NCBI GenBank assembly: GCA_019637105.1
Contig: JAHBWF010000048.1
Location: 1 to 45,625 of the forward strand
DNA: 45,625 nucleotides
Source: Labilithrix sp.
GTDB taxonomy: Bacteria > Myxococcota_A > Polyangia > Polyangiales > Polyangiaceae
Direction of reading: 5' to 3'
The notes beneath the pieces were generated by a model that was not told where the DNA came from, ran no database searches, and was given only the letters and a program-made list of their open reading frames with translations. Positions 2,593-33,822 of the stretch are shown one piece after another; the first letter of the stretch is position 1; each line of letters begins with the position of its first letter. The position numbers and the translations under genes were made by a program.

Positions 2593-3861
2593 ATGCATGA
2601 GCTGAGACTCGTCGGCACGATGGTGATCTTCGCCGGCACGTTGATCCTCGTGCTCGTGAAGCCGCGGCGGTGGAGCGAGGCATGTTGGCCCGTGCTCGGC
2701 GCGATCGCCATGATCGCCCTCCGGTTCGTCACGCCGGCGCAGGCGGTGGAGATGGTGTGGGCGTCGCGGAGCGCGCTGCTCTTTTTGCTGGCGCTCCTGC
2801 TCCTCTCGGCGCTGCTCGAGGTCAGCGGGTTCTTCGAATGGGCCGCGCTCCGCACGGGCCATCGCGCTCGCGGCGACGGGCGGCGGCTCTTCGGGAACGT
2901 CTTCGCGCTCGGCGCGATCGTCACCACCGTGCTCTCCCTCGACACGACGGCGGTCATGCTCACGCCGATCGTGCTCGCGTTCGTCAAGCGCCTGCGGTTG
3001 CCGGCCCGGCCGTTCGTCATCGCGTCGGCCTTCGTCGCCAACGTCGCCTCGCTCGCGCTCCCGATCAGCAACCTGACGAACCTGCTCTTCGCCGACGCCT
3101 TCCGCATCCCCTTCGGGCGCTTCGCGCTGAGCATGCTCGCGCCGCAGCTCGTCGCCGTGTCCGCCACCTACGGGCTGCTGCGCTGGCGCTTCCGCGCGGA
3201 GCTCCCGCGCGCGTTCGAAGCCGCGGAGCTCGCCGCGCCGTCCGCGGCCGTCCCCGATCGCAGCTACTTTCGCGTCGCCGTCGGGGTCCTCGGGCTCGTC
3301 CTCGTCGGCTACTTCGCGTCGCCGGCGCTCCACGTCGAGCCGTACGTCGTGGCCTTCGGCGGCGTCGCCGTCCTCGTCGCGTACGGCGCCCGTCGCCGCC
3401 GCGTCGGGCTCGGCACGCTGCGCGAGATCTCGTGGGGGCTCTTCCCGCTCGTGATCGGCCTCTTCGTCGTCGTGCGCGGGGTCGAGAACCTCGGCGTCGT
3501 CGCGATCGCGGCCGAGTGGGTCGCGAGCGCGCCGCGCCACTCGCTCGTCCGCGTCCTTCTCGCGGCGGCGATCGCGGGCGGCGCGGCCAACGCGATGAAC
3601 AACCTCCCGGCGGCGCTCGTGGCGCGGAGCGTGCTCCAGGCGGCGGGCGCGGAGAGCTCCGGCGTGTACGGCGCGCTCATCGGCCTCGGCGTCGGCCCGA
3701 CGATCCTGCCGACGGGCTCGCTCGCGACGCTGCTCGTCCTCGACGTCGCGCGGAAGAAGGGCGAGCCGATCTCGGGTATGGAGATGGTGAAGGTGGGCCT
3801 GTGGCTGACGCCGATCGTGCTCTTCGCGTCGGCGGTGACGTTCGCCCTCGTCGACCGCTGA
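2593..3861 (+). CDS. ArsB/NhaD-superfamily ion permease
   Basis: A 422-residue inner-membrane transporter with about ten to eleven hydrophobic helices. The conserved loop SLDTTAVMLTPIVLAF and the later SLALPISNLTNLLFAD are characteristic of the ArsB/NhaD/SLC13-like permeases, and an N-N-L-P-A-A-L motif in the second half matches the pseudo-repeat of this fold. Members export arsenite or exchange Na+ and H+. Nothing nearby (no arsR, arsC or arsA) identifies the substrate, so I give no gene symbol. It is monocistronic, divergent from the CBS gene. The ATG at 2593 follows a weak GAGGA element. Confidence 0.82.
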   Translation: MHELRLVGTMVIFAGTLILVLVKPRRWSEACWPVLGAIAMIALRFVTPAQAVEMVWASRSALLFLLALLLLSALLEVSGFFEWAALRTGHRARGDGRRLFGNVFALGAIVTTVLSLDTTAVMLTPIVLAFVKRLRLPARPFVIASAFVANVASLALPISNLTNLLFADAFRIPFGRFALSMLAPQLVAVSATYGLLRWRFRAELPRAFEAAELAAPSAAVPDRSYFRVAVGVLGLVLVGYFASPALHVEPYVVAFGGVAVLVAYGARRRRVGLGTLREISWGLFPLVIGLFVVVRGVENLGVVAIAAEWVASAPRHSLVRVLLAAAIAGGAANAMNNLPAALVARSVLQAAGAESSGVYGALIGLGVGPTILPTGSLATLLVLDVARKKGEPISGMEMVKVGLWLTPIVLFASAVTFALVDR

Positions 3862-4612
3862 CGCCGTTCGCCGCCTCGGTGTACGGTAGTCTCCGCGGCG
3901 TTCGGCGCGGCGATCGTTCGGAGCAGCGACATGAGGCTTGGCGGCGAGAGAGACATCACCGGGGGCGTCGCGCGGCGGCTCGGGAGGCGGAGCGCGGCGG
4001 TCGCCGTGCTCGCGTGCACGCTCGGCTGGATCTCCGCGTGCCGCGACGACGTCGTCCGCGCCGAGGCACCGCCGGCCGACGCCGGCCTCGACGAAGACAC
4101 GGGCAGCGCGCCCGTCCCCGACGCCGGTCGTCTGCTCGGCTGCCCCGGGGAGACGCCCGCGAGCTACCCGTGGCGGCCGCCGGTCGCCGCGCAGTCGTCG
4201 GCGTGCACCGGCGAAGACCTCGAGCGCCTTCGCTCGGCGATCGCCGCGAAGTCGCTCGTCGCGGCGGACGACATCGCGACGGCGCTGGGGCCGACGTGCG
4301 CCGCGTGCGCCATCGGCTCGGTCGAAGACCCGACCTGGCGGGCGGTCGTCTCCGGGCACGAGGGCTACATCGGGAACGTCGGCGGGTGCACGATGCTGGT
4401 CGGCGCGGACGAGCCGTGCGGCAGGGCGATCGACGAGCTCTCGACCTGCCTCATCGTCGGATGCGCCGGGTGCGAGGACAGGCGCGCGGAGGACTCGTGC
4501 GCCGACACGCTCACGACCGTCGACGGCGCCTGCGCGCGCGCTGACGGACGCACGCGAGCGCTGCCCGGCGCGCTCTCTCGCGTCGGCGTTCGACTCCCAG
4601 GGATCGTGTCAG

Positions 4613-5686
<1,074 letters not shown>

Positions 5687-5715
5687 GGGCCCAGAGTAAG
5701 GTAACTTCTCGATCG
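5687..5715. promoter_or_regulatory. 29-bp divergent promoter interval, possibly leaderless both ways
   Basis: Only 29 bases separate the start codons of the kinase and the sigma factor. A TACTCT (-10-like, minus strand, 5698-5693) lies six bases before the kinase ATG, and TAACTT (5702-5707) lies eight bases before the sigma ATG. Neither gene has a Shine-Dalgarno sequence here. No good -35 elements are visible, so this is inference. Confidence 0.35.
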
Positions 5716-6516
5716 ATGGGAGACGCGGCGCGAGCTCGGGAGGCGGTCGCCCTCGCGCGCGCAGCGCTGCCGTCGCTCGCCGTCTCCGACGCGATCCTCG
5801 AGGAGCACGTCCTCCGCTGGATGGCCGGAGGCGCGCCGCAGCTCGAGCTCGTCGACCTCGTGCTCGCCCGCGCGTGCGCCGCGGGCGATCCCGCGGCCCT
5901 CGCGCATTTCGACGCGACCTACCGATCCGAGATGATCGCCGCGCTGTCGACGCTGCGCGCGCCGCGCGATTTCGTCGACGAGGTGATGCAGTCGGTGCGC
6001 GAGAAGCTCTTCGTCGGTCCGTCGCCGAAGATCCTCGAGTACGGGGGGCGCGGCGCGCTCCGGGCGTGGCTCCGGGCCGTCGTGGTCCGCTCGGCGCTCA
6101 ACGCGCGAAGACGGAGGATCTCCGAGCCGAAGCCGTCGGCCGACGACGACCGCTTGCTCGACGTCGCGGCCGCGTCGAGCGGCGATCCGGAGATCGCCGA
6201 GATCGTCGCGAAGTACGGGGACACGTACAAGCGAGCGGTCCACGAGGCGCTGGCCGAGCTGACGACGGAGGATCGGAACATCCTCCGCCTCTCGCTCCTC
6301 GAGGGGCTCTCGATCGACGGGATCGCGCAGATCTACGGCGTGCACCGCGCGACGGTCGCGCGCCGGATCGCGCGCGCGAGGGAGAGCGTCGCCGAGGGGG
6401 CGCGGAGGCGGTTGGGGGAGCGCACGCGCCTCGACCTGTCCGAGCTCGCGAGCGTGACGCGGGCGTGTCGGACCGAGCTCGACCTCAGTCTGGTCAGGGC
6501 GCTCGAGCGGCCCTGA
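5716..6516 (+). CDS. Sigma-70 family RNA polymerase sigma factor (myxobacterial type)
   Basis: A 266-residue ECF-sized sigma factor with an N-terminal extension. The region-2-like helices lie about residues 50-125 and contain FVDEVMQSVREKLF and LRAWLRAVVVRSALN. Region 4 lies about 175-235 and has the helix-turn-helix LSIDGIAQIYGVHRATVARR followed by IARARESV. This arrangement resembles the large myxobacterial sigma family. It would direct RNA polymerase to unknown promoters. The adjacent divergent kinase carries a zinc-finger segment of the kind found in anti-sigma factors. The downstream lipoprotein, 129 bp away, may be a target. Confidence 0.87.
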   Translation: MGDAARAREAVALARAALPSLAVSDAILEEHVLRWMAGGAPQLELVDLVLARACAAGDPAALAHFDATYRSEMIAALSTLRAPRDFVDEVMQSVREKLFVGPSPKILEYGGRGALRAWLRAVVVRSALNARRRRISEPKPSADDDRLLDVAAASSGDPEIAEIVAKYGDTYKRAVHEALAELTTEDRNILRLSLLEGLSIDGIAQIYGVHRATVARRIARARESVAEGARRRLGERTRLDLSELASVTRACRTELDLSLVRALERP

Positions 6517-6645
6517 TTTCGGTCGCTCCCGCGGCGCTCCGGAGAAATCGACCTCCCGGCGCATTTTCCGGCGCGACTTTCGGCGAGGGGCCGTGTCTTG
6601 GCGCGCGAACGGCGACGTTCGCCGACGAGCAACGAAGAGGACCCC

Positions 6646-7014
6646 ATGAACACGGTACGTATCGCATCGCTTGCCATCATCGTCACCCTCGCCGCCGCGG
6701 CCGTCGCGTGCAGCTCCTCCGACGACGGGGGCTCGAGCTCCGGCGGCAGCTCGAGCGGCTCCAGCGGCTCGGGGAACGGCGGCGGAGGAGGAGGGGGCGG
6801 AGGCGGCGGAGGCGGCGGCAACGGCAACGGCGGCTCGAGCGGCGGCGGGAACGGATCCGGCTCGAGCGAGCAGCGGTGCTCCGCGGCGGCCATCAACGGT
6901 CGCTGCGCGAGCGGCCCGAACAAGGGGCAGTCGTGCTGCATGCCCGACGAGGACGAGGGCATCACGTGCGACGAGGGCACGGACTGCGACACGGTCTGCG
7001 AGCACTGCGAATAG
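6646..7014 (+). CDS. Gly/Ser-rich secreted lipoprotein
   Basis: The 122-residue product starts with a lipoprotein signal ending in AAAAVACSSS (Cys about residue 22 would be lipidated). A Ser/Gly linker of about 50 residues follows, including a run of 14 glycines, then a small Cys-rich end with eight cysteines spaced as in a disulfide-stabilised mini-domain (RCSAAAINGRC, SCCMPDED, DCDTVCEHC). The ATG at 6646 is preceded by GAAGAGGA; an upstream TTG lacks this. It lies downstream of the sigma factor on the same strand and converges on the FGE-lipoprotein operon. The fold and role of the Cys-rich end are unknown. Confidence 0.78.
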   Translation: MNTVRIASLAIIVTLAAAAVACSSSDDGGSSSGGSSSGSSGSGNGGGGGGGGGGGGGGNGNGGSSGGGNGSGSSEQRCSAAAINGRCASGPNKGQSCCMPDEDEGITCDEGTDCDTVCEHCE

Positions 7015-7015
7015 C

Positions 7016-7073
7016 GCTCGGAGTCCGTCCGAGCCTTCTCCGCGGCGCGCCGCCGTCTCTGAAGCTCGGACGG
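7016..7073. terminator. Nested hairpins between convergent transcripts
   Basis: A 7-bp-arm hairpin (GCTCGGA 7016-7022, TCCGAGC 7028-7034) overlaps a larger one in which CCGTCCGAGCCTTC (7025-7038) pairs with GAAGCTCGGACGG (7061-7073), with one bulge. The two are mutually exclusive folds. They lie between the ends of the plus-strand lipoprotein gene and the minus-strand operon and could terminate both. Confidence 0.55.
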
Positions 7074-7077
7074 CTCT

Positions 7078-8406
7078 TCAGCGCGCGTCTCGCGCGCAGC
7101 GAAAGCCGATCTGCTCGCTCACGGCGAAGCGCTCGTCCTCGATGAAGCCGCGGAGCGCCGCGCGCAGGAGCGTGCCCTCGTCGCGGTAGGAGCCGCCGCG
7201 GACGCTCCGGGCTACGGGCGTCTCGGGCGGATCCGGATCGCACACCGGATCGAAGAAGACGCCGTCTCCCCAACACGAGCGGAACCGCGAGGGCCGGTAG
7301 CGATCGGCGACGAGCTCGCGCACGTTGCCGGCGAGATCGAGGACGACCGCGTCGCCGAGCGCGAGGCGGTCGCGGGAGCCGCTCCCGGCGCGCGCGGGAC
7401 CGCTCGTTTCGGGGCACGCGCGTTCGTCGTGCCGAGCGTCGTCGCACGACGGGAGATCGGAGCCCCACGGGAACGCGCGGCCCACGAGCGCGCCCGCGAC
7501 GTACTCGTGCTCGGCCTCCGTCGGGAGGCGCTTGCCGACCTTGGCGCAGAAGGCGCGCGCGCGCTGCCACGACAGGCAGTTGACCGGGAGCGCGTCGGCC
7601 GCGCCGGGAGCGGCGGTGTAGACGCAGCCGGGGCGGTCGGGGGCGGCCTCGACCGGATCGTCGACGACGCGCGCCACGCGCGCGGCGCGCATCGCCGCCA
7701 CGGTGACCTCGGCGCGATCGATGTAGAAGGGCGAGAGGACGACCACGCGTTCGGAGGTGCCGTCGGCCTCGCGCGCGTCGAGCACGTCGAGCCTCGGGTT
7801 CCCCATCCAGAACGCGCCGCCGGGGACGCAGGCTTCGTCGTCGTCGGCGGCTCCGGCGCACGGCGTGGGAGCCGCGCCGGGGAAGCTTCCGACGAGCCCC
7901 GGCGCCGGCCGCCCGGGCTCGACCGAGTCGGGGGCCTCGAGCGTGCCTCGCGGGCGCGCGAGATCGGCGAGCCACAGCGTGACCGTCACGTCCACCACGC
8001 CCTCCTCGCGGATCGGCGGCAGCGCGACGACGCGCTCGAGCGTGGAGGCCTCGCGCGGCTCGCCGCTCGCGGTGCCGCCGCTCCGGAAGAGGCGCACGCG
8101 CGCGCGGTAACCGCCGACGTTCGGGCGAGGGAAGAACCCGAACGAGGCCTCGCCGCGCGCCATCCGCTCGTCGTCCAGCGCGAACTCGCGCGAACAGCCG
8201 CCGCAGGGCGCGAGCTCGCCCGGCGGGACGAGATCGACGCGGAGCCGGTCGAAGAGCCCCCGCGTGCCGCTCGGGCCGACGGGCGCGTCCGTGGTGACGA
8301 ACACGAGGAGCTGCCCCTCGGGCGGCGCCTCGCGCGCGCAGGAAGGCGCGACGGCCGCGGCGCAGGCGAGCGCGAAGGGAGCGCGGAGCCCCGGCCACGG
8401 TGTCAT
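7078..8406 (-). CDS. Lipoprotein with FGE-sulfatase-like domain (second copy)
   Basis: The 442-residue product begins with a hydrophobic signal ending in VAPSCAREA, a weak lipobox. About 200 residues of beta-rich linker domain follow, then an FGE-sulfatase (formylglycine-generating-enzyme family) domain at about 200-442. Family landmarks are GGAFWMGNP, FYIDRAEVTV, PVNCLSWQRARAFCA, KRLPTEAEHEYVA, LDLAGNVRELVAD and the final RSVRGGSY ... IGFRCARD. The paired active-site cysteines that true FGE has after the RGGS motif are absent, so sulfatase activation is unlikely; a binding or scaffolding role outside the cytoplasm is more likely. It is the last gene of the run. Its ATG overlaps the previous stop as ATGA, indicating translational coupling. 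Confidence 0.85.
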   Translation of the reverse strand: MTPWPGLRAPFALACAAAVAPSCAREAPPEGQLLVFVTTDAPVGPSGTRGLFDRLRVDLVPPGELAPCGGCSREFALDDERMARGEASFGFFPRPNVGGYRARVRLFRSGGTASGEPREASTLERVVALPPIREEGVVDVTVTLWLADLARPRGTLEAPDSVEPGRPAPGLVGSFPGAAPTPCAGAADDDEACVPGGAFWMGNPRLDVLDAREADGTSERVVVLSPFYIDRAEVTVAAMRAARVARVVDDPVEAAPDRPGCVYTAAPGAADALPVNCLSWQRARAFCAKVGKRLPTEAEHEYVAGALVGRAFPWGSDLPSCDDARHDERACPETSGPARAGSGSRDRLALGDAVVLDLAGNVRELVADRYRPSRFRSCWGDGVFFDPVCDPDPPETPVARSVRGGSYRDEGTLLRAALRGFIEDERFAVSEQIGFRCARDAR

Positions 8407-9812
8407 CGGCTGCCCTCCTGGACGCAGCGAAACCCGATGAACGAGCTCGGGCCGGTCGCCGCGAGGCGCGCCGTGCTCCGGACGTTGATCGCGGTCGACG
8501 CCCACGCGCCGCCCCGGACGACGTGCGCGCCACCGGACGAACGCGCGCATGATGCATCGACGCGCGCGTGGCAGGGATCGTCGTAGGTCGTCGGCGCGTC
8601 GCGGACCCACTCGGCGACGCCCCCGCCGAGCGCGTGGACGCCGGTCGGGGAACGATCGGCCGGCGCGGCGTGGCTCGGCAGCGGGCCGCTCCCCGCGGCC
8701 TCGCACGCGCCGGCGATCCCCGCGAGCTCGAGCCGGCCGTACACGGCTCGCCCGCAGTCGGGCGGCTCCTCGCCCCACGGGAACGTCGCCTTGGCCGTCC
8801 GTCCCGCCGAGGTCGCGGCGTACTCCCACTGCGCCTCGGTCGGGAGGTCTCCGCCGTCGAACGTGCAGAGCGCGCGCGCGGTCGCCCAGGTGACGCAGGT
8901 GAGCGCGAAGGCCTCGCGGCCGCGCGGAGCGGCGCTGAAGGTGCACGCCGTCTCGGGCGCGGCGCCGAGCTCGCCGTCGTTCGAGACCGGAGGCTCCGGA
9001 GGGACGAAGCCGCGCGCGAGCGCGTCGCGGAACCGGGCGACGGTGACCTCCTCGCGATCGAGGAGGAAGCCGCGGACGCGAGCGATCCGCTCGGGCGCGA
9101 GCGGGACGGTCGGATCGGGGACGACGGAGACGTCGTCGGCGCCGAGGACGAACGCGCCGCCCTCGAGGCACGCGCGATCCCGCTCGCCGATCGGCGCGGG
9201 GCACGGCGTGCGCGCCGCGCTCCCGGCGACGCTCGTGGGCGGGGTCGAGAGCTCCGGCTCGAGCGCGGCGGCGGCGACGGGCTCGAGCGCGCCTTCACCC
9301 TCCGCGCAGCTCGCGAGCGCGCCGGGGACGACGCGCGCCTCGACGCCGGCGCACGAGGCTCGGGCGACGACGCGCAGGCGCCCGCGCTCGCCGGGGCGAA
9401 GGCGGATGAGGACGAGGCGATCGACGGTGAGCGCGGGCTCGGGCTCGGACGACGGCGTCTCGTCGGCCCCGTCGACGACGAGCCGAGCGGGGCCGACGGC
9501 GTCGCGGAGCCGCGCGCCGTGGGCCCGCAGGCGGACGACGACGTCGCGCTCGGCCCGGTCGTCGGCGGCCTGGACGCTGAAGCTGACCGGCCAGTCGCGC
9601 GGGTCGGGGCGTCCGACGTCGCGCGAGTCGAGCCACGTGCCGTCGATCGCGTACAGGTCGACGCGCAGCGCCGAGACGACGCGCGGCACGGGGAGATCGG
9701 TGTCCACCACGACGAGCGCCTCGCCGAGCGGAGGCAGCTCGCGCGCCGCGCAGCCCGCCGCCGCCGCGCTCACGAGCGCGAGCGACGCGATCAAGGCGCG
9801 CGCAGCACCCAC
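8403..9812 (-). CDS. Lipoprotein with FGE-sulfatase-like domain (first copy)
   Basis: A 469-residue paralogue of the next gene. The start is a GTG at 9812 inside the end of the upstream gene (22-bp overlap); it gives a clean signal peptide with the lipobox-like SAAAAGC. Residues 20-225 form a beta-rich region containing LVVVDTDLPVPR and VVVRLRAHGARL. The FGE-sulfatase-like domain occupies about 225-469, with EGGAFVLGADD, FLLDREEVTVARF, GGDLPTEAQWEYAA, LGGGVAEWVRD and VVRGGAWAS ... FIGFRCVQEG. As in its paralogue, no cysteines occupy the FGE catalytic positions. The shared N-terminal design of the two proteins (a phrase like LVVVDTDLP/LVFVTTDAP, then an Arg-led beta domain) suggests tandem duplication. 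Confidence 0.85.
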   Translation of the reverse strand: MGAARALIASLALVSAAAAGCAARELPPLGEALVVVDTDLPVPRVVSALRVDLYAIDGTWLDSRDVGRPDPRDWPVSFSVQAADDRAERDVVVRLRAHGARLRDAVGPARLVVDGADETPSSEPEPALTVDRLVLIRLRPGERGRLRVVARASCAGVEARVVPGALASCAEGEGALEPVAAAALEPELSTPPTSVAGSAARTPCPAPIGERDRACLEGGAFVLGADDVSVVPDPTVPLAPERIARVRGFLLDREEVTVARFRDALARGFVPPEPPVSNDGELGAAPETACTFSAAPRGREAFALTCVTWATARALCTFDGGDLPTEAQWEYAATSAGRTAKATFPWGEEPPDCGRAVYGRLELAGIAGACEAAGSGPLPSHAAPADRSPTGVHALGGGVAEWVRDAPTTYDDPCHARVDASCARSSGGAHVVRGGAWASTAINVRSTARLAATGPSSFIGFRCVQEGSR

Positions 9813-10933
9813 CCGAGGCCTCCGCCGTTCGCCGCCGGCCGCTCGGGCTCCGGGCGCGTCACGAAGTACGTCGTCGCGGTCGCGAAGACGAGGACCGCGC
9901 CCGCGGCCGTCCAGAACCACCACTTCTTGGTGATCGGAGGCTGCTCCGGAGGGAGCGGCGCGGCGAGGGAGAGCCGGCCGCCGGGCTCGAGGACGGCGTC
10001 CGCGTCGAACGGCACGAACCCGACCTTGCGCACCGCGACGTGGTAACGCCCCGCGGGCCGGCGGACCGTCACGGGGGCCGCGCCCACGTCGACGCCGTCG
10101 ATGGCGACCGCGGCGCCGGCTCGCGCGGCGCGCACCTCGAGCTCGCCGTCGAGCCGCGCGAGGACGAGATCGAGCGACGCGGGGCTCCCGCGCGAGAACG
10201 TCTCGCGCCGGACGACGTCCTGGAAGCCCGGACGCGAGAGCACGAGGACGTGGAGCCCCGGATCGAGCTCGAGCCGGAACCGCGCCGCCGGCGGCGCGGA
10301 GCCCGGGCCCGGCGCGGCGAGCCCGGCTGTGAGGGTCGGGACGTCGCCGTCGGCGGTGACCTCGAGAGGCCGCCCGTCGACGGTGAGGGTCGCGGTCGGC
10401 GGATCGAGGTGCACGTCGACCGACACGAGCACCGCGGCGAACTCGGAGAGGAAGGCTTCGGTGTCGGCGCGCGCCGAGTCGGGGAGCGCGCCGAGCGAGC
10501 TCGATCGATCGAGCTCGCGAGCGCGGAGGAGCGTGCGGCGCGCGCGCGCGTATCGACCGAGCGCGCGCTCGCAGGCGGCGACGTTGAAGAGCGTGGCGGG
10601 GTGCTCGACGCGCTCGAAGCTCCGTTCGAACGCCGCGAGCGCCTCGGACCACTTCGCTTCCTTGACGAGCTCGGCGCCCGCGGCGAAATCCGCGCGAGCC
10701 CGCGCGCGGTCCTCCTCGTCCTCGCCGGCGTGAGCGCGCGAGCCGTGCGCGGCGAAGAGGAGGACCGAGAGCGCGACGACCACCCAACGGCGGAACGCCC
10801 AGGCGCGGCTCGATCGCGCCGCTCCCGGGAGACGAAGGGCGCGGAGCCGAGCCAGGCGCGAGGAGCCGGAGCTTCGGGCGCTCGCCCGAACGAGCGCTCG
10901 AGACGGAGGCTCACGGCGGACGATCACGGCCAT
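9791..10933 (-). CDS. TPR/PEGA-domain membrane protein
   Basis: A 380-residue envelope protein. Around residues 48-70 there is a signal anchor (WVVVALSVLLFAAH, then SRAHAG). TPR-like helices follow (about 75-140: ADFAAGAELVKEAKWSEALA, FNVAACERALGRYARARRTL). Then come two PEGA-type beta modules (DPPTATLTVDGRPL, and AIDGVDVGAAPVTVRRPAGR with HVAVRKVGF). A C-terminal membrane helix (KKWWFWTAAGAVLVFATATT) precedes a short tail. PEGA domains are small surface or periplasmic beta modules common in myxobacteria next to Ser/Thr kinases. The gene starts 41 bp after the kinase and overlaps the next gene, so they are very probably co-transcribed. The exact start is uncertain because about 45 residues precede the signal helix. 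Confidence 0.82.
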   Translation of the reverse strand: MAVIVRREPPSRALVRASARSSGSSRLARLRALRLPGAARSSRAWAFRRWVVVALSVLLFAAHGSRAHAGEDEEDRARARADFAAGAELVKEAKWSEALAAFERSFERVEHPATLFNVAACERALGRYARARRTLLRARELDRSSSLGALPDSARADTEAFLSEFAAVLVSVDVHLDPPTATLTVDGRPLEVTADGDVPTLTAGLAAPGPGSAPPAARFRLELDPGLHVLVLSRPGFQDVVRRETFSRGSPASLDLVLARLDGELEVRAARAGAAVAIDGVDVGAAPVTVRRPAGRYHVAVRKVGFVPFDADAVLEPGGRLSLAAPLPPEQPPITKKWWFWTAAGAVLVFATATTYFVTRPEPERPAANGGGLGWVLRAP

Positions 10934-10974
10934 AGCTCGGCGAGCCGGCTCATCGGGCCGTGAGCTTACTCGAA

Positions 10975-12333
10975 TCAGAACGGCGCGTTCACGATGATCC
11001 TCCCCGGCCCGGGGCCGTCGCCGGCGTCGGCGCGCGCCGGCGACGCGCTCGGCGCAGCGGCGACCGCCGTCGATCGTGGCGGAGGTCGCGGCGTCGACGA
11101 CGCGGCCGCGGCGTTCGGCGCGGAAGGCGCGGCGTCGGGCGTGGAGGTCGCGGCGTCGGGCGCGGAAGGCGCGTCGACGGGCGTGGAGGCCGCGGCGTTC
11201 GGGGCGGAGAGCACGGCGAGCGGCGCGGAGGTCGCCGGAGCCGTGGCGTCGCCGCGAGAGGACTCGGTACGCCGGAGGCCGACGCCCAGCGCGGCCGCGG
11301 CGACGACGCCGGCGACGACCATCGCCGCCGCTCTGCGCAGCGCGCGCGGGCGCGCGCCTCTCGACGCGGCGGGCGTCCGTCCGTTCGGCTCCGGAGCCTC
11401 CGTCGCGCTCGGATCCGACGGAGCCCTCGCGGCCGCAGCGTCCCGCGTGGCCTCGACCGCGCTCGACGCGGTCGCCGCCGCCGCGAGCGAGGCGGCGACG
11501 CTCGCCAGGTCGACCTCGCGCGCCGTCGGGGCACGTTCGAGCAACCGCGCGGAGAGCGCCGCGATCTCGTCCGGGACGCCGGGCGCGATCTCCTCGAGCG
11601 GCGCGATCCGCTCCTGGGTGATGCGCTTGATGACCTGGCCGAGGTTGTCGGCCTGCGTGGGCCGCGCTCCGCTCAGGCACTCGTGGAGCAGGATCCCGAG
11701 CGCCCACGCATCGACGGCGGGCCCGACGCGCTCGCCGAAGGCCTGCTCGGGCGCCATGTAGTACGGCGTCCCCAGCATCGCTCCGCTCTCCGTCAGGTTC
11801 GTCGTGGGCTCTTCGGTCGCGACGAGCTTCGCGACGCCGAAGTCGAGGATCTTCACCGCGGTCGGAGCCGGGATCTCGTCTCGAGCCGCGGCCCCGACGA
11901 GGAAGACGTTCTCGGGCTTGACGTCGCGATGGATGATGCCCGCGGCGTGGGCCGCCGCGAGCGCGCTCGCGACGGGCGCGAGGATGGCGCACGTCTCGAC
12001 GAGCGAGAGCGCGCCCTTGCGCTCGAGCCGCTCGCGGAGCGACTCCCCGCGGAGCAGATCCATGACCAGCGCGGGCGCGCCGTCGGCGTCGATGACGTCG
12101 ATGACGGGGACCACGCTCGGATGATCGATCGCGCACGACGCGCGCGCCTCGCGCAGGAGCCGAGCCCGCGACGCGTCGTCGGCGGCGCCGCCCCTGCGGA
12201 GCACCTTGATGGCGACCTCGCGCTTCGTCACGATGTGCGTCGCCGCCCAGACGACGCCCATGCCGCCGGCGGTGAGCCGCCGGTCGAGGCGGTAGCGGCG
12301 ACCGACGACCGCCCGAGGCGCGAGCGCCGTCAT
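10975..12333 (-). CDS. Transmembrane Ser/Thr protein kinase
   Basis: A 452-residue eukaryotic-type kinase. The catalytic domain (about 10-275) has TAGGMGVVWAA (the first Gly of the loop is Ala here), VAIKVLRR, the catalytic IIHRDVKPENV, ILDFGVAK and YYMAPEQAFGE. One membrane helix follows at about 333-350 (AAAMVVAGVVAAAALGVGL). The extracytoplasmic C-terminus of about 100 residues is a low-complexity Ala/Pro/Ser/Thr segment built from repeats such as APSAPDAATSTP. It lies 45 bp downstream of the ion-channel gene and 41 bp upstream of the TPR/PEGA gene, so it is the central gene of the minus-strand run. Its extracytoplasmic tail could contact the downstream envelope proteins. Confidence 0.92.
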   Translation of the reverse strand: MTALAPRAVVGRRYRLDRRLTAGGMGVVWAATHIVTKREVAIKVLRRGGAADDASRARLLREARASCAIDHPSVVPVIDVIDADGAPALVMDLLRGESLRERLERKGALSLVETCAILAPVASALAAAHAAGIIHRDVKPENVFLVGAAARDEIPAPTAVKILDFGVAKLVATEEPTTNLTESGAMLGTPYYMAPEQAFGERVGPAVDAWALGILLHECLSGARPTQADNLGQVIKRITQERIAPLEEIAPGVPDEIAALSARLLERAPTAREVDLASVAASLAAAATASSAVEATRDAAAARAPSDPSATEAPEPNGRTPAASRGARPRALRRAAAMVVAGVVAAAALGVGLRRTESSRGDATAPATSAPLAVLSAPNAAASTPVDAPSAPDAATSTPDAAPSAPNAAAASSTPRPPPRSTAVAAAPSASPARADAGDGPGPGRIIVNAPF

Positions 12334-12378
12334 GGCGGTGTCCGACCCTCGCGCCGTTGGGGCCCGCGGGTCATCGCG

Positions 12379-13668
12379 TCAAGCCGCGGCGACGAGCAAG
12401 AAGGCGATGCTGGTCGCCAGCGAAATCACGGGGAGCGCCCACGACATGAAGTAGAACGCCTCGCGCTGCACGTACGGCCCGAAGAGGCGGGCGATCACGT
12501 TGTAGCGGAAGCACACGACGACGATCGCGAGGGTGATCGCGAGCATCGCGTAGTTCACGCCGAAGAGGCGCGTGACGGTGTTGTCGCCGTTCGCGATGAC
12601 GCCGTAGGAGGAGTAGATCGCGAAGCTCAGCGCGATCACGGAGAAGAGGCCGCCGATGCTCATGTTGGCGAGCGAGAGGGTGTCCCCTTCGAACCCGTGC
12701 TCGGTGGCCTTGTTCATCCAGATCGAGAGGAGCGGGATGATGAGCGACGCGAGGAGGGGGATGAAGATCGGAGCGAGGCTCGTGACCCACACGCGATCGA
12801 CGATCAACGCGGCGGTCGTCTGCGAGTACCGGTCCCCGTTCCACCCGGGGATGGCCTCGGAGCGCAGATCGACGAGGCCGATGGTCCACCCGTCGAGCTT
12901 CGCGTCGCGCGCGGCGCGGCTGAAGCCGACGTCGTCCTTGTCGAAGCGGAGCAGGACCTCGTCGGTCGTGTCGTCGCGTACGATCAGCTCGAGCGCGAGG
13001 CGCTGCCGGTCGAACGGGAAGGTCTCGGCGGAGACGCGAGTCTTGTAGCGCGCCGTCACGCGCGTGAGGCTCTCGACCTGACCGTCGGGGAAGATGCGCA
13101 GCCGGCGCCCGACGTACGGCGCGGCCTCGAGTCGGTTCGTCACGTCGATGCTGGGCGACCACATCTTGGCGAGCTGGTCCTCGACCTCCTTGCCACGGAA
13201 CTCCCTGTACCCGCGGAGGTTCTTGGTCGTGAGCCGCAGGCGTGGATCGACCCACCGCAGGCGCACGTCGGTCGTGCACTCGAACTCGCTCTTGGTGTCG
13301 TCGAACGACTTGAGATCGAGGAAGAACACGGCGACGTTCACGTTGACCGGCAGCCCCTTCCCGAGCGGGAGCGTCGTGAGGCCGGCTTCGGCGCCGGCTG
13401 CGGGAGCGGGCTCCGCGGGCGCGACGGCCTCGGCCGGCGGCTCCGCGTCGGCGCCGGCGTCGTCGGCGCCGGCGTCCTGGACGCGCTTGGCCGCCTTCTC
13501 GCCTTTGCGCCCCGCGGCGGAGGCCTGCTTCGCCGCCGGCGCGCCCTCCGCCGCGCCGGACGTCTCGGCGCCGCGGAGGCGGAGGGGAAAGAGGACGAGC
13601 GCGAGGCCGCACAGCGTCGCGAGCAACGCGAGCAGGACGGCGCGGGCGTGCGGGCGACGTCGCGTCAT
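12379..13668 (-). CDS. Pentameric ligand-gated ion channel (pLGIC, Pro-loop family) homologue
   Basis: The 429-residue product has the full pLGIC plan. There is an N-terminal signal/anchor helix (11-31), an Ala/Lys/Pro linker (32-95), a beta-sandwich ligand domain (about 100-290) and four membrane helices (about 298-318, 332-354, 366-386, 405-427). Diagnostic motifs are FDDTKSEFECTTDVRLRW followed by DPRL (141-144), and FPFDRQ (217-222), the family's signature loop. As in other bacterial members the loop lacks the flanking cysteines. A positively charged SIWMNKATEHGF segment joins TM1 and TM2. The start overlaps the Cache-gene stop as ATGA, and a perfect GGAGG lies in front. It would form a homopentameric cation or anion channel in the inner membrane; the ligand is unknown. 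The membrane-anchored N-terminus and linker are unusual additions. Confidence 0.92.
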   Translation of the reverse strand: MTRRRPHARAVLLALLATLCGLALVLFPLRLRGAETSGAAEGAPAAKQASAAGRKGEKAAKRVQDAGADDAGADAEPPAEAVAPAEPAPAAGAEAGLTTLPLGKGLPVNVNVAVFFLDLKSFDDTKSEFECTTDVRLRWVDPRLRLTTKNLRGYREFRGKEVEDQLAKMWSPSIDVTNRLEAAPYVGRRLRIFPDGQVESLTRVTARYKTRVSAETFPFDRQRLALELIVRDDTTDEVLLRFDKDDVGFSRAARDAKLDGWTIGLVDLRSEAIPGWNGDRYSQTTAALIVDRVWVTSLAPIFIPLLASLIIPLLSIWMNKATEHGFEGDTLSLANMSIGGLFSVIALSFAIYSSYGVIANGDNTVTRLFGVNYAMLAITLAIVVVCFRYNVIARLFGPYVQREAFYFMSWALPVISLATSIAFLLVAAA

Positions 13669-14783
13669 GACCTCCTCTGCGCGCGGAGGTGCTCGTAGTT
13701 GCGGGCGAGCGTCTCGAGCTCCTCGCAGTAGCTGTCGAGCGCGTTGGCCGGTCGCGAGGCGTCCCCCGCGACGAGCGCGGACATCCGCTCGTTGATGGCC
13801 GCGAGGGGCGCGACGAGCACGCCGCGGACGACGATCAGGATCGTGCCGGCCAGCAGCACCACGCTGACGAGCGCCGCGAGCACCTGCCAGATGAGCGCCC
13901 GGCGCGCCAGCGTCTTATCCTCTTCGAAGCTCATCGCGATGGCCACGACGCCGATCTGCTTGTTGGCGTAGTTCAAGAGCGGCATCAGCTGGACGCCCCA
14001 CGGGACGCCGGCCACCGTTCGCTCGTAGGTCTTCGGACCGGTGATGTCGATGTCTCGGTCGAAGACCAGCGCGGCGGCGAGATCGGGGTGCGTGGCGTGG
14101 TAGCGGATGTACTTCCCCACGCGGTTCTTCTGGGTGATGACGTCGCCGGGGAGGTCGGTGGCGATGTCGTGGAGCTGCTTCTCCTGGAAGAAGACCGCGC
14201 CCTCCAGGCCGAAGGCGGTCTTCATGTCGTCGAGCACCGGGCCGAACTCGAGGCCCATCTCGAAGCTGCCGGACAGGTTCCCCGCGGCGTCGAAGATCGG
14301 GACGATGCCGAGGATCGCCGGGCCGGCCTTGGTGATCGCGACGCCCTTCCGGAGGGCCTTCTCCTCGTGGACCTCGGAGAGCATCGGGCGGTAGCTCGTC
14401 TGGTCGTCGCCGAACTTCGCCGGCGCGTCGAGCCTCAGGAACGAGACGCCGGGAGGCGTGTGGAACTGCGCCTGATCGATCGCGTACTTCTCCTCGAGGA
14501 GCTTGAAGGCGCCCTGGCACTCGCCGAGGAGCTTCGGACGATCGCGCTCGAGGAACGCGGTTCGGACCGACGGCATGTTCGCGAAGATCTCGGCGTCGGA
14601 GGAGGCCTCGTCTTCCATGCCCTTGAGCGTGCCGGTGAACGCGCGCTGCATCAGGTCGTAGTCGCCTGCGTGAGCGGTCTCGACGAGGCGCTTCGTCATG
14701 AGCTGAGCGATGAGGGTGATCGCGATGACGACGACGGTCGACGCCGTGATCAGCAAAAGAGGGCCGCTGAGTCGGAATTTCAC
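13665..14783 (-). CDS. Cache-HAMP membrane sensor without an output domain
   Basis: A 372-residue inner-membrane protein with TM1 (8-29), a large periplasmic region (30-296), TM2 (297-319) and a HAMP-like stretch plus short coiled coil (320-372). The periplasmic part has the double-Cache look (dCache_3-like): FHTPPGVSFLRLDAPAKFGD, then YRPMLSEVHEEKALRKGV, and GIVPIFDAAGNLSGSFEMGL. Chemoreceptors and sensor kinases carry this input module, but here the protein stops right after the HAMP region, with no kinase, cyclase or receptor tail. The start codon is GTG at 14783. It overlaps the ion-channel gene by four bases, so it may act as a ligand-sensing partner of that channel. Confidence 0.85.
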   Translation of the reverse strand: MKFRLSGPLLLITASTVVVIAITLIAQLMTKRLVETAHAGDYDLMQRAFTGTLKGMEDEASSDAEIFANMPSVRTAFLERDRPKLLGECQGAFKLLEEKYAIDQAQFHTPPGVSFLRLDAPAKFGDDQTSYRPMLSEVHEEKALRKGVAITKAGPAILGIVPIFDAAGNLSGSFEMGLEFGPVLDDMKTAFGLEGAVFFQEKQLHDIATDLPGDVITQKNRVGKYIRYHATHPDLAAALVFDRDIDITGPKTYERTVAGVPWGVQLMPLLNYANKQIGVVAIAMSFEEDKTLARRALIWQVLAALVSVVLLAGTILIVVRGVLVAPLAAINERMSALVAGDASRPANALDSYCEELETLARNYEHLRAQRRS

Positions 14784-15158
14784 GGCGTCGACGTTCGCTT
14801 TCCAGGGTCGCTCGAGTCAAGCGGTTCGGCGCGGCGGGGACTCCGGGGGGGGCGCGTCGCGCGCGGGCGTTCGCCGGCGCGCTCCGCCGGGCGGGCGCGA
14901 GGTGTCCGCGGCGGGAGAGCGGATCGGTCGCGACGAGCTGCCGGCCGCCGCCCGCGGTGCGCGCGGCGACCGCGAGCGCAGGGCGACGCGTCGCGCGTGA
15001 CGCGTTGGGGCGCTCTTGCAGGGTCGTCCTGCGATCCGCCGGCGTCGCCGGAGCGATCTCGCGGAGTTGGATCCGTGCCGCGGTGCGACGACGAGGGCAC
15101 GTCGCTTGCGACGCTCCCCTGCGCGTCAATCGTGGCGCTCCCGACAGGAGAGAACGAA
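14784..15158. other. Intergenic region between the Cache operon and csbD-like gene
   Basis: This 375-bp divergent interval shows no open frame with coding character. It must hold the promoter of the minus-strand sensor/channel run and that of the CsbD-like gene, but I could not identify convincing -35/-10 pairs. The only local structure is a small 5-bp hairpin, GCAGG-gtcgt-CCTGC, about 15016-15030. Confidence 0.5.
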
Positions 15159-15458
15159 ATGGGCAACGTTGCGGCTCGTGGCGAAGGAAAGGCGGAGCAG
15201 GTCGGCGGCAAGATCAAGCAGGGGATCGGCAAGGCGATCGGCAACGAGCAGATGGAAGCGGAGGGCAAGGCGCAGGAGCTGAAGGGCAAGGCCCGAGAGG
15301 AGGCCGCGAAGGCCGGCGAACGCACGAAGGGCAAGATCGAAGAGGTCACCGGCGCGGTCAAGAACCGGGTCGGCGCGGCCATCGGCAACGAGCAGATGCA
15401 GGCCGAGGGCAAGGCGCGGGAGCTGAAGGGCGAGGCGCGTCAGAAGTCGAACGAGTAG
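15159..15458 (+). CDS. CsbD-family stress protein with duplicated repeat
   Basis: A small, very charged 99-residue cytoplasmic protein. Two copies of the CsbD unit are visible: IGKAIGNEQMEAEGKAQELK and VGAAIGNEQMQAEGKARELK, about 47 residues apart and nearly identical at DNA level. Family members in other bacteria belong to general-stress regulons; their biochemical role is not established. The ATG follows ACAGGAG. It stands alone, divergent from the Cache/ion-channel run. The duplication inside the gene looks recent because the DNA copies still match closely. Confidence 0.9.
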   Translation: MGNVAARGEGKAEQVGGKIKQGIGKAIGNEQMEAEGKAQELKGKAREEAAKAGERTKGKIEEVTGAVKNRVGAAIGNEQMQAEGKARELKGEARQKSNE

Positions 15459-15572: not shown

Positions 15573-16022
15573 TCAGGCCGCCGGCGGCTTGGCCTGGCGC
15601 GCGGCGTCGCCGGCGAGCTCGAGGAGCCAGCGCTTGTCCTCGGCGTCCTTCGTGAGCGAAGCGGCCTTCTTGAAGGCCGCCGCGGCCGCGCGGTAGAGCG
15701 CTCGGGCGCGGCGTTGCTTCGCCTCGGCTTGCGTGCGCGCCGCGACGAGCTCGCAGGTCTTCGCGAGGGTGGCCCAGGCGGCCTTCCGCTCCGGCGTGAG
15801 CTTCGTCGCCTTGGATGCATAGTACAGCGATCGCGCCGTCGACTTGCGGCGCGCCCAGCCTCGCGCGAGCTCTTCGGCGACGACGGCGCTCGCGTCGGCG
15901 TCGCCGGCCTCGCGCGCGCTGGCGTAAGCGAGCTCGAGCTTGGCGACGGCGCCCTTCACGTCGCTCTTCATCGACGCGGAGGCCTCCTTCACGAGGCGCG
16001 CGACGTCTTCTCCGGCGGCCAT
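15573..16022 (-). CDS. Small TPR-like helical protein
   Basis: A 149-residue, all-helical, Ala-rich protein without signal or membrane segment. Helix pairs such as [20 protein letters not shown] and [20 protein letters not shown] resemble degenerate TPR repeats, which suggests a protein-binding scaffold in the cytoplasm. The ATG overlaps the stop of a 59-codon upstream ORF as TGATG, indicating translational coupling. No enzymatic residues are recognisable. It faces the csbD-like gene convergently. Confidence 0.65.
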
Positions 16023-27365: not shown

Positions 27366-28661
27366 ATGAGAAAGATCGCATCCGTTCACGCTCGCCAGAT
27401 CCTCGACTCCCGGGGTAGCCCGACGGTCGAGGTCGACCTCGTGCTCGACGACCGCCGTAACGGTCGAGCCGCCGTCCCCTCCGGCGCGTCCACGGGATCG
27501 CGCGAGGCGGTCGAGCTCCGCGACGGTGACGAGGAGCGGTACGGCGGCAAGGGCGTCACGAAGGCCGTCGCGAACGTGAACGGGCCCATCGCCAGCCGAC
27601 TCGTCGCCGAACCGGTCGAAGATCAGGCGGCGCTCGACGTCCTCTTGCGCGAGCTCGACGGCACCGAGGACAAGAGCCGCCTCGGTGCCAACGCGATCCT
27701 CGGCGTGTCGCTCGCCTTTGCGCGCGCGGTCGCCGCGAGCGAGCGCGAGCCTCTCTACCGCTCCCTCGGCGGCCCGGGCGCGACGCTGCTGCCGGTCCCG
27801 ATGTTCAACGTGCTGAACGGCGGCGTCCACGCGGACAACAGCGTCGATCCGCAGGAGTTCATGATCGCCCCCTGCGGCGCGCCCTCGTTCTCGGAGGCGC
27901 TCCGGATGGGAGCCGAGACCTACGGCGCGCTCAAGTCCGTGCTGAAGCGGCGCGGCTACGCGACGTCGGTGGGCGACGAGGGCGGGTTCGCCCCGAACGT
28001 TCGATCGAACGAGGAGGCGATCGAGGTCGTCGTCGAGGCCATCTCGAAGGCCGGCTTTCGTGCGGGCGACGACGTCGTCATCGCCCTCGACCCCGCGGCG
28101 AGCGAGTTCTTCGAGGACGGCGCGTACGTCTTCAAGAAGTCCGACGAGAGCCGCCGAACGCCGGCCGAGATGGTCGCGTTCTGGGAGCGCTGGGTCGACA
28201 GATATCCGATCGCGTGCATCGAGGACGGCGTCGCGGAGAACGACGACGCGGGGTGGAAGCTCATCACGCAGCGCCTCGGCGCGCGCGTCCAGCTCGTCGG
28301 CGACGACAACTTCGTCACCGATCCCGCGTTGATTCGCGCCGCCGCTGCCGACGGGATCGCGAACGCGGCGCTGGTCAAGCCGAACCAGATCGGGACTCTG
28401 ACCGAGACCCTGGCCGCGATCGCCGAGGCCAAGAAGGCGGGCTACGGGACCGTCATCAGCCATCGGTCCGGCGAGACGGCCGACGACTTCATCGCCGATC
28501 TCGCCGTCGCCACCTCCGCCGGGCAGATCAAGACGGGAGCCCCGTGTCGCGGCGAGCGCCTCGCCAAGTACAACCGGCTCCTCCGGATCGAAGAGGAGCT
28601 CGGGAGCCGCTCTCGCTACGCTGGGCGCGCGCCCTTCTCCCGCGGGCCAACGCGGCGATGA
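27366..28661 (+). CDS. eno: Enolase
   Basis: A 431-residue cytoplasmic enzyme interconverting 2-phosphoglycerate and PEP. It is full length with the expected motifs: [93 protein letters not shown] and [11 protein letters not shown]. Mg2+ ligands and the catalytic Lys of the KPNQ loop are present. The ATG has AGGAG upstream; the in-frame TTG at 27327 is not needed. A remnant of a second enolase lies at 21341-21575. It is not adjacent to pyrG or ftsB, the usual housekeeping context, so it may be an additional copy belonging to the island. Confidence 0.96.

Positions 28662-31646: not shown

Positions 31647-33822
<2,176 letters not shown>

What the first reader, a model, noticed from the sequence alone, without database searches (positions are those of the whole stretch)
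7078..14783. Six-gene envelope signalling run joining a Cache sensor, a pLGIC ion channel and a Ser/Thr kinase
All six genes are on the minus strand with gaps of -4, 45, 41, -22 and -4 bp (negative means overlap). The order is Cache-HAMP sensor, pentameric channel, membrane Ser/Thr kinase, TPR/PEGA envelope protein, and two FGE-fold lipoproteins without FGE catalytic cysteines. Kinase, PEGA and FGE-like genes are familiar myxobacterial neighbours (established knowledge). Placing them directly behind a neurotransmitter-receptor-type channel and its sensor is something I do not know as a described system. The inferred model: a ligand or envelope signal gates an ion channel, and a kinase with an extracytoplasmic tail plus surface lipoproteins report or relay it.
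Basis: partly seen in the sequence, partly recalled or inferred. Interest (0 to 1): 0.82.

Follow-up and report, generated by a model that had tools for sequence, protein, structure and literature searches.

The report
Sensor gene paired with ion-channel gene
Of the six genes only two clearly belong together, a membrane sensor and, overlapping it, a relative of animal neurotransmitter-receptor channels that stay side by side in related bacteria, while the kinase and three envelope genes behind them look like a separate cassette that landed there.

Summary
They are most likely two units. The Cache sensor and the pentameric channel (pLGIC) form a conserved pair: of 184 genomes of the order, the same 19 have strong matches to both; with one more from another order, 20 of 20 pairs lie sensor first on one strand, overlapping by 4 bases in 19 and 1 base in 1; their trees agree better with each other than with enolase. 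The sensor is a dCache_3 protein with two membrane helices and a HAMP-like tail but no output domain, so the channel is its likeliest output (inferred). Kinase, PEGA and FGE-like genes lie in 8.5 kb missing from the two closest relatives; a related PEGA-FGE-FGE cassette behind a kinase sits elsewhere in the genome. Against a clean split, FGE-like genes lie near 4 of the 19 other pairs, 6 found where about 1.1 are expected. Cache-pLGIC fusions and one predicted operon are in print (PMC549065, passages), so this is a new variant of a known kind.

The parts
13665..14783 (-). dCache_3 sensor with two transmembrane helices and a HAMP-like tail, no output domain (372 aa)
   Evidence: Pfam dCache_3 8.1e-22; AlphaFold2 mean pLDDT 88.9, first helix 3-69, two Cache lobes, helices 287-338 and 354-370; HAMP in 13 of 21 family members, not in this one
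12379..13668 (-). pentameric ligand-gated ion channel subunit (429 aa): N-terminal hydrophobic helix, disordered linker (about residues 28-93), ligand-binding-domain fold, four TM helices
   Evidence: Neur_chan_LBD 4e-13; phmmer to GLIC 1.8e-13; AlphaFold2 mean pLDDT 71.5, Foldseek to GLIC TMt 0.79
13665..13668 (-). ATGA overlap of Cache stop and channel start
   Evidence: same -4 overlap in 19 of 20 pairs, -1 in 1
3862..12378 (.). 8,517 bp present between channel and ArsB-like gene here, absent in L022 and L023; G+C 75.4% against 71.0% for the rest of the window
10975..12333 (-). membrane Ser/Thr kinase; most likely part of the separate cassette, not of the pair
   Evidence: Pkinase 4.4e-42; next gene behind the channel only here among 20 loci
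9791..10933 (-). TPR/PEGA protein of the separate cassette (start uncertain)
   Evidence: PEGA 6.2e-15; 41% identical paralogue in L109
8403..9812 (-). FGE-fold lipoprotein 1 of the separate cassette (start uncertain; lipobox by eye)
   Evidence: PF03781 2.5e-27; 39% identical paralogue in L109
7078..8406 (-). FGE-fold lipoprotein 2 of the separate cassette (lipobox by eye)
   Evidence: PF03781 1.4e-25; 40% identical paralogue in L109

Best explanation
The finding is two things side by side. The first is a conserved two-gene unit: a membrane sensor (dCache_3 periplasmic domain, two TM helices, HAMP-like cytoplasmic end, no enzymatic or chemoreceptor output) whose stop codon overlaps the start of a pLGIC gene. 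Shown: gene order, overlap, matching presence in the order sample, congruent trees, purifying selection, folds. Inferred: translation of the two is coupled; the sensor binds a small molecule in the periplasm and acts as a separate regulatory chain of the channel, shifting its gating, as proposed for Cache domains fused to other bacterial pLGICs; the ion flux is the signal. The second is a kinase-PEGA-FGE-FGE cassette that sits between the channel and its convergent ArsB-like neighbour in this lineage only and shows no conserved tie to the pair. I put about 0.88 on the two-unit reading (lowered from 0.93 after the FGE count), about 0.7 on functional coupling of sensor and channel, and about 0.5 on a physical complex in which the sensor gates or tunes the channel.
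For: Presence: of 184 genomes in the order, 19 have a channel match at E<=1e-40 and the same 19 have a Cache match at E<=1e-120. In 377 genomes drawn across the phylum, which overlap the order sample, 6 of 6 strong channels have the Cache gene, one of them in another order of the class (G444). Order and overlap: 20 of 20 pairs same strand, sensor first, -4 in 19 and -1 in 1. Channel starts there were set by me; my gene caller picks the same start in 15 of 20 and a later one in L029, L030, L062, L064, L067. Trees: Cache and channel share 10 of 14 splits on 17 taxa, with no conflict where both supports are 90 or more; distance correlation 0.96, partial 0.93 after removing enolase distances, 0 of 5000 permutations as high. 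Both gene trees group G034 with G109 at 100, against enolase, which pairs G109 with G177 at 100, as joint transfer would give. Selection over the four closest sequences: dN/dS 0.10-0.26 for Cache, 0.27-0.41 for the whole channel, 0.18-0.34 for its core. Neighbours: apart from a kinase/FGE cluster (8 locus files, mixed places and strands) and a PEGA/TPR cluster (3), the only family in more than 2 locus files is that of 15573-16022, in the window, L022 and L023. Cassette: absent in L022 and L023, where the ArsB-like gene follows the channel after 2 and 9 bp; paralogous cassette on contig C1 without a channel. In print: Cache fused to bacterial pLGICs and one stand-alone Cache-pLGIC predicted operon (PMC549065, passages).
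Against: No experiment and no complex prediction: only monomers could be modelled. The sensor class is normally dimeric (recalled), the channel pentameric, so a direct complex needs a symmetry mismatch or a monomeric sensor. Genome G003 carries a second Cache copy with no channel beside it. Output-less dCache_3-HAMP proteins also occur in tandem in G247 with no channel found on that stretch, so lack of an output domain does not by itself point to a channel. Cache relatives with STAS (G030) and GGDEF (G392) outputs exist. Against the clean split: FGE-like genes within 8 kb of 4 of the 19 other pairs (G163, G101, G179, G067), 6 genes by Pfam or tblastn, where 767 in about 173 Mb would give about 1.1 (sums mine); in G163 one is the next gene behind the channel on the same strand (gap 97), in G067 the next but convergent (gap 31). 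In G043 a kinase and a PEGA gene follow on the pair's strand beyond two other genes. Co-occurrence counts ignore phylogeny, and the genome searches score only a capped number of candidates.
Confidence: 0.6

Rival explanations
1. One reading: one six-gene system in which sensor and channel report to the kinase, PEGA protein and surface lipoproteins.
For: Same strand and short gaps; no terminator-like site in the 45-bp gap (2 sites in 12200-15300, both inside genes, 1.1 expected). FGE-like genes near 4 of 19 other pairs, more than expected. Kinase and PEGA genes on the pair's strand further behind the channel in G043.
Against: Kinase is the next gene behind the channel in 1 of 20 loci. Block absent in the two closest relatives. 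At least 151 kinases in the genome; 8 kinase hits in flanks of the other loci against 4.3 expected at that density (chance about 0.07, computed), in mixed orientations. Stand-alone paralogous cassette.
Confidence: 0.08
2. Sensor and channel share regulation and sense the same or related compounds, but work in parallel: the HAMP tail talks to a separate cytoplasmic partner encoded elsewhere.
For: The HAMP-like tail is conserved (R320, P326, E355, E364 invariant in 21 sequences) although it faces the cytoplasm, where a pLGIC offers little (recalled); orphan Cache copy in G003; tandem output-less dCache_3-HAMP proteins in G247.
Against: No unlinked strong pair among 20; congruent trees; no regularly placed third gene nearby.
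Confidence: 0.25
3. The Cache protein is an assembly or trafficking helper for the channel rather than a ligand sensor.
For: Overlap with sensor first suits co-assembly; Cache-bearing alpha2-delta subunits of animal calcium channels act in part so (recalled; the Cache parallel is drawn in PMC549065).
Against: Both lobes keep invariant polar residues (R117, R132, N220, R221, Y225), as expected for ligand pockets; not tested.
Confidence: 0.12

Closest known systems
Predicted operon of a stand-alone Cache gene and an ART-LGIC gene in Rhodopseudomonas, and Cache/MCP-N fusions in Methanosarcina, Cytophaga, Microbulbifer (Tasneem et al., PMC549065; passages read)
   Same: Cache sensor next to or fused to a bacterial pLGIC; same idea that the two cooperate
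   Different: There one genome or a fusion; here a two-TM dCache_3 protein with HAMP-like tail, separate gene, 20 pairs, near-fixed overlap, congruent trees. Whether the Rhodopseudomonas Cache is of the same subfamily was not tested.
GLIC, proton-gated pLGIC (PDB 3eam and others)
   Same: Same fold and sequence family; FPFD-type motif
   Different: About 20% identical; no such N-terminal linker in GLIC (recalled); ligand of the window channel unknown
DeCLIC, calcium-sensitive pLGIC with extra N-terminal domain (PMC9897478, passages; PMC12664993, listing and start of abstract)
   Same: Bacterial pLGIC with an additional periplasmic regulatory module
   Different: Module is two jelly-roll lobes in the same chain, not a Cache receptor from a second gene
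DctB-type dCache sensors (PDB 3e4o, 2zbb)
   Same: Third and fourth Foldseek matches of the sensor, 3e4o being succinate-bound (E 2.6e-7, TMt 0.55); the first two are integrative models of WalK and McpB complexes
   Different: DctB ends in a histidine kinase (recalled); here no output. The fold match is moderate and does not give the ligand
pLGIC followed by a solute-binding-protein gene (same phylum: L102, L104, L106)
   Same: A second small-molecule-binding protein beside the channel
   Different: SBP_bac_3 by Pfam in L104 and L106, by matching N-terminus in L102, not seen on the short contig L101 of the same family; downstream, not Cache upstream. The PBP-II kind is already described (PMC549065)

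Membership tests
Pentameric ligand-gated ion channel | Cys-loop-type ligand-binding domain in sequence | tested here: met
   Neur_chan_LBD 4e-13, over cut-off; GLIC 1.8e-13
Pentameric ligand-gated ion channel | Four transmembrane helices after the LBD | tested here: met
   Helices 294-318, 330-354, 364-388, 398-428 in the model, block pLDDT about 50-83; Foldseek GLIC TMt 0.79
Pentameric ligand-gated ion channel | Pro-loop / FPFD motif | tested here: met
   F217 P218 F219 D220 invariant in 19 sequences; the motif is recalled, the name Pro-loop is in the title of PMC4795631
Pentameric ligand-gated ion channel | Pentamer that conducts ions on ligand binding | not testable with these tools
   monomer model only
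dCache_3 receptor | dCache_3 profile match | tested here: met
   8.1e-22 in the window; 21 of 21 members
dCache_3 receptor | HAMP after TM2 | tested here: inconclusive
   13 of 21 members match Pfam HAMP, best 8.9e-4, not the window's own; weak match to Af1503 HAMP
Sensor kinase / chemoreceptor / GGDEF protein | C-terminal output domain | tested here: not met
   chain ends after the HAMP-like tail and overlaps the channel start
Six-gene conserved operon | Same neighbourhood in relatives | tested here: not met
   pair kept in 20 of 20, kinase next behind the channel in 1 of 20
Formylglycine-generating enzyme | Catalytic cysteine pair | tested here: inconclusive
   Absent by eye against a recalled motif; no alignment to a solved enzyme was made

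The most novel reading that the evidence does not exclude
A class of bacterial pLGICs is gated or tuned by a separate transmembrane dCache_3-HAMP receptor that has lost its enzymatic output and taken the ion channel as its effector: a two-protein ligand-gated channel, analogous to Cache-bearing auxiliary subunits of animal calcium channels.
Probability: 0.45. Interest if true: 0.75.

Novelty: new variant of a known kind. Interest (0 to 1): 0.45.

Why it matters
The ligands and cellular roles of most bacterial relatives of neurotransmitter receptors are not known (recalled). A sensor gene that has stayed with the channel gene, with overlapping stop and start, names a concrete partner to test. 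If the receptor gates the channel, receptor and pore would sit on separate chains in a family known for having both in one, and Cache receptors, common bacterial sensors, would be linked to ion flux.

Tried and rejected
Six-gene system: not borne out by synteny, with the counter-signs named under evidence against. LigA as species marker: rejected, because the window's ligase is a diverged second copy. The window's enolase is likewise a second copy; the other copy of G000 (C310) was used in the tree. G067 and G444 have no enolase match and were dropped; G036 dropped out of the three-way comparison because its channel is split, and G003's orphan Cache copy was left out, leaving 17 taxa. VIA-align was not available. 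Plasmid collection: no match to the channel. The kinases of the two cassettes do not align by BLASTP, although both are Pkinase, so the paralogy claim rests on PEGA, FGE1 and FGE2. Direct repeats at the insert: one 18-nt G+C-rich match (3893, 11106), no convincing insertion mark. Kinase density in the 19 relatives could not be measured: each count was stopped at about 79 scored of 103-314 candidates. Paper searches for this pair: one search held 0 papers; I saw only the listings (20 of 521; 15 of 630; 1 of 1; 12 of 47; 12 of 729), and none of the listed titles and abstract starts describes it. PMC549065 was recalled and opened directly. In PMC4795631 the terms cache, periplasmic, operon, neighbo, fusion and myxo do not occur in the main text.

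Full report
What is there. The window is one whole contig (C278, 45,625 bp) of an 8.45 Mb genome in 334 contigs. Its close relatives L033 and L034 are records of Labilithrix sp. MAGs; Labilithrix belongs to Polyangiales, Myxococcota. Domain searches confirm dCache_3, Neur_chan_LBD, Pkinase, PEGA and two FGE-sulfatase domains. The channel is the only one found in its genome.

The sensor. AlphaFold2 with 21 family members gives mean pLDDT 88.9: a long first helix (3-69), two Cache lobes, a long second helix (287-338) and a short last helix (354-370). Foldseek finds dCache sensors; the third match is succinate-bound DctB (E 2.6e-7, TMt 0.55), behind two integrative models, and CitA matches one lobe (TMt 0.80 over 127 columns). 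The ligand is not known. The end of the protein is HAMP-like: 13 of 21 members match Pfam HAMP (best 8.9e-4; not the window's copy) and the family profile touches Af1503 HAMP weakly. No output domain follows, and the next gene starts within its stop.

The channel. A family profile matches GLIC at E about 1e-25 and the model matches GLIC with TMt 0.79. It has a hydrophobic helix (7-26), a stretch of pLDDT mostly below 50 (28-93), then the ligand-binding domain and four helices; the transmembrane part is modelled with only moderate confidence, block means about 50-83. FPFD and W139, W170, W261, W276 are invariant in 19 sequences.

The pair is real. In 184 genomes of the order, 19 have a strong channel match (E<=1e-40) and the same 19 a strong Cache match (E<=1e-120); 11 more have only a distant channel (1e-10 to 1e-23) and no Cache match at 1e-10; 2 have only a distant Cache (G028, G030). 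In 377 genomes drawn across the phylum (overlapping the first sample) 6 have both strongly, including G444 of another order; 10 have only a distant channel and 2 (G247, G392) only a Cache relative, at 1e-20. These searches score a capped number of candidates per genome. I read all 20 pairs: same strand, sensor first, overlap -4 in 19 and -1 in 1. The starts were set by me, ATG in 12 and GTG in 8; my gene caller agrees in 15 of 20 and takes later starts in the other 5. G163 is split between contigs, but its Cache contig ends in the start of the channel gene; the channel of G036 is also split, its start lying behind the Cache gene. Exception: G003 has a second, intact Cache copy without a channel.

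Inheritance. On 17 shared taxa the Cache and channel trees share 10 of 14 splits; with enolase they share 6 and 5 of 14. The distance correlation is 0.96, and 0.93 after removing the enolase component (0 of 5000 permutations as high). Both trees group G034 with G109 and G177 with the f3 genomes at 100, against the enolase pair G109-G177 at 100. One marker gene is a thin species tree, so joint transfer is suggested rather than proven. Among the four closest sequences dN/dS is 0.10-0.26 (Cache), 0.27-0.41 (whole channel) and 0.18-0.34 (channel core).

The other four genes look like a separate cassette. In L022 and L023 (channel 88 and 79% identical) a convergent gene, homologous to the window's ArsB-like 2593-3861, follows the channel 2 and 9 bp on; in the window that gene lies 8,517 bp away, with the kinase, PEGA, FGE-like genes, a second kinase and a sigma-factor-like gene between. 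Genes on both sides of the gap have homologues in the same surroundings in L022, so a chimeric contig is unlikely. The extra stretch is richer in G+C (75.4 against 71.0%). On contig C1 of the same genome a sigma-like gene, a kinase, and PEGA, FGE1 and FGE2 paralogues (41, 39, 40% identical) stand in a row with no channel. In this genome FGE-like hits lie near kinases more often than random (12 of 39 within 5 kb, 16% expected, two of the 12 being the window's own).

Background and counter-signs. Kinases: at least 151 in this genome; in the flanks (8 kb each side where held) of the other loci 8 were found where 4.3 are expected at that density, in mixed orientations (chance about 0.07). Only the window has a kinase as the next gene behind the channel (20 loci); in G043 a kinase and a PEGA gene follow on the same strand beyond two other genes. 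FGE-like genes: 4 of the 19 other loci have them within 8 kb (G163, G101, G179, G067), 6 genes in all, five of them tested by Pfam and one by tblastn only; at 767 hits in about 173 Mb of the 19 genomes (sums mine) about 1.1 would be expected in these flanks. In G163 the FGE-like gene is next behind the channel on the same strand (gap 97), in G067 next but convergent (gap 31). So a loose tie between FGE-like lipoproteins and this channel is not excluded. I lowered the two-unit reading from 0.93 to 0.88, my overall confidence from 0.62 to 0.60, and raised the six-gene rival from 0.06 to 0.08 for this.

How it most likely works. Shown: linkage, overlap, matching presence, co-inheritance, folds, absence of another output. 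Inferred: a periplasmic small molecule binds the dCache domain; the sensor, acting as a separate regulatory chain, changes the gating of the channel, perhaps together with a ligand at the channel's own site; ion flux is the output. The weak points are stoichiometry and the cytoplasmic HAMP-like tail, which has no obvious partner on a pLGIC. The rival that sensor and channel work in parallel stays at about 0.25.

Known or new. Tasneem et al. (PMC549065; passages only) describe Cache and MCP-N fusions to bacterial pLGICs, neighbourhoods with PBP-II genes, and one Rhodopseudomonas predicted operon with a stand-alone Cache gene. The listings I saw from searches of the open-access library name no paper on a dCache_3-HAMP/pLGIC pair; the one paper holding both pentameric ligand-gated and myxobacter is a general review (listing). 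Those listings are partial, and most subscription papers are not in the library. So the pairing is a known kind, and the conserved two-TM, output-less receptor form is a variant I did not find described. Elsewhere in the phylum, channels with a solute-binding-protein gene behind them (L102, L104, L106) show a second, already described kind of arrangement.

Noticed in passing
window 31774-33822 and 27366-28661: NAD-dependent DNA ligase and enolase genes (Pfam) are diverged second copies; another copy of each sits elsewhere in the genome (C307, with one in-frame stop in the matched frame, and C310), and enolases of relatives are only 54-57% identical to the window's.
   Followed up: partly
L058 2228-3361 (G163) and L066 10398-11405 (G067): FGE-like genes as the next gene behind the channel in two other genera, same strand and convergent respectively; more FGE-like genes near the pair than expected.
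   Followed up: partly
window 4613-5686 (-) and 5716-6516 (+): Zinc-finger Ser/Thr kinase and a sigma-70 region-4 protein back to back inside the 8.5 kb insertion; a sigma-like gene and a kinase also precede the paralogous cassette in L109.
   Followed up: partly
L060 9103-10221 (genome G003): Orphan paralogue of the Cache sensor without a channel gene; nearest to the G010 Cache in the tree (support 100).
   Followed up: partly
L098 2841-5381 (genome G247): Two tandem dCache_3-HAMP proteins with no output domain and no channel found on that stretch.
   Followed up: no
L102, L104, L106: pLGIC genes followed by a solute-binding-protein gene in three of four genomes of family f42 elsewhere in the phylum.
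   Followed up: partly
window 15156-15458 (+): CsbD-like stress gene divergent from the Cache-channel pair; a homologue also divergent in L022.
   Followed up: no
window 11104-11235: 21-bp tandem repeats in the low-complexity tail of the kinase gene.
   Followed up: no
L063 1540-3297: A kinase fused to an FGE-like domain, upstream of the Cache-channel pair of G101.
   Followed up: no
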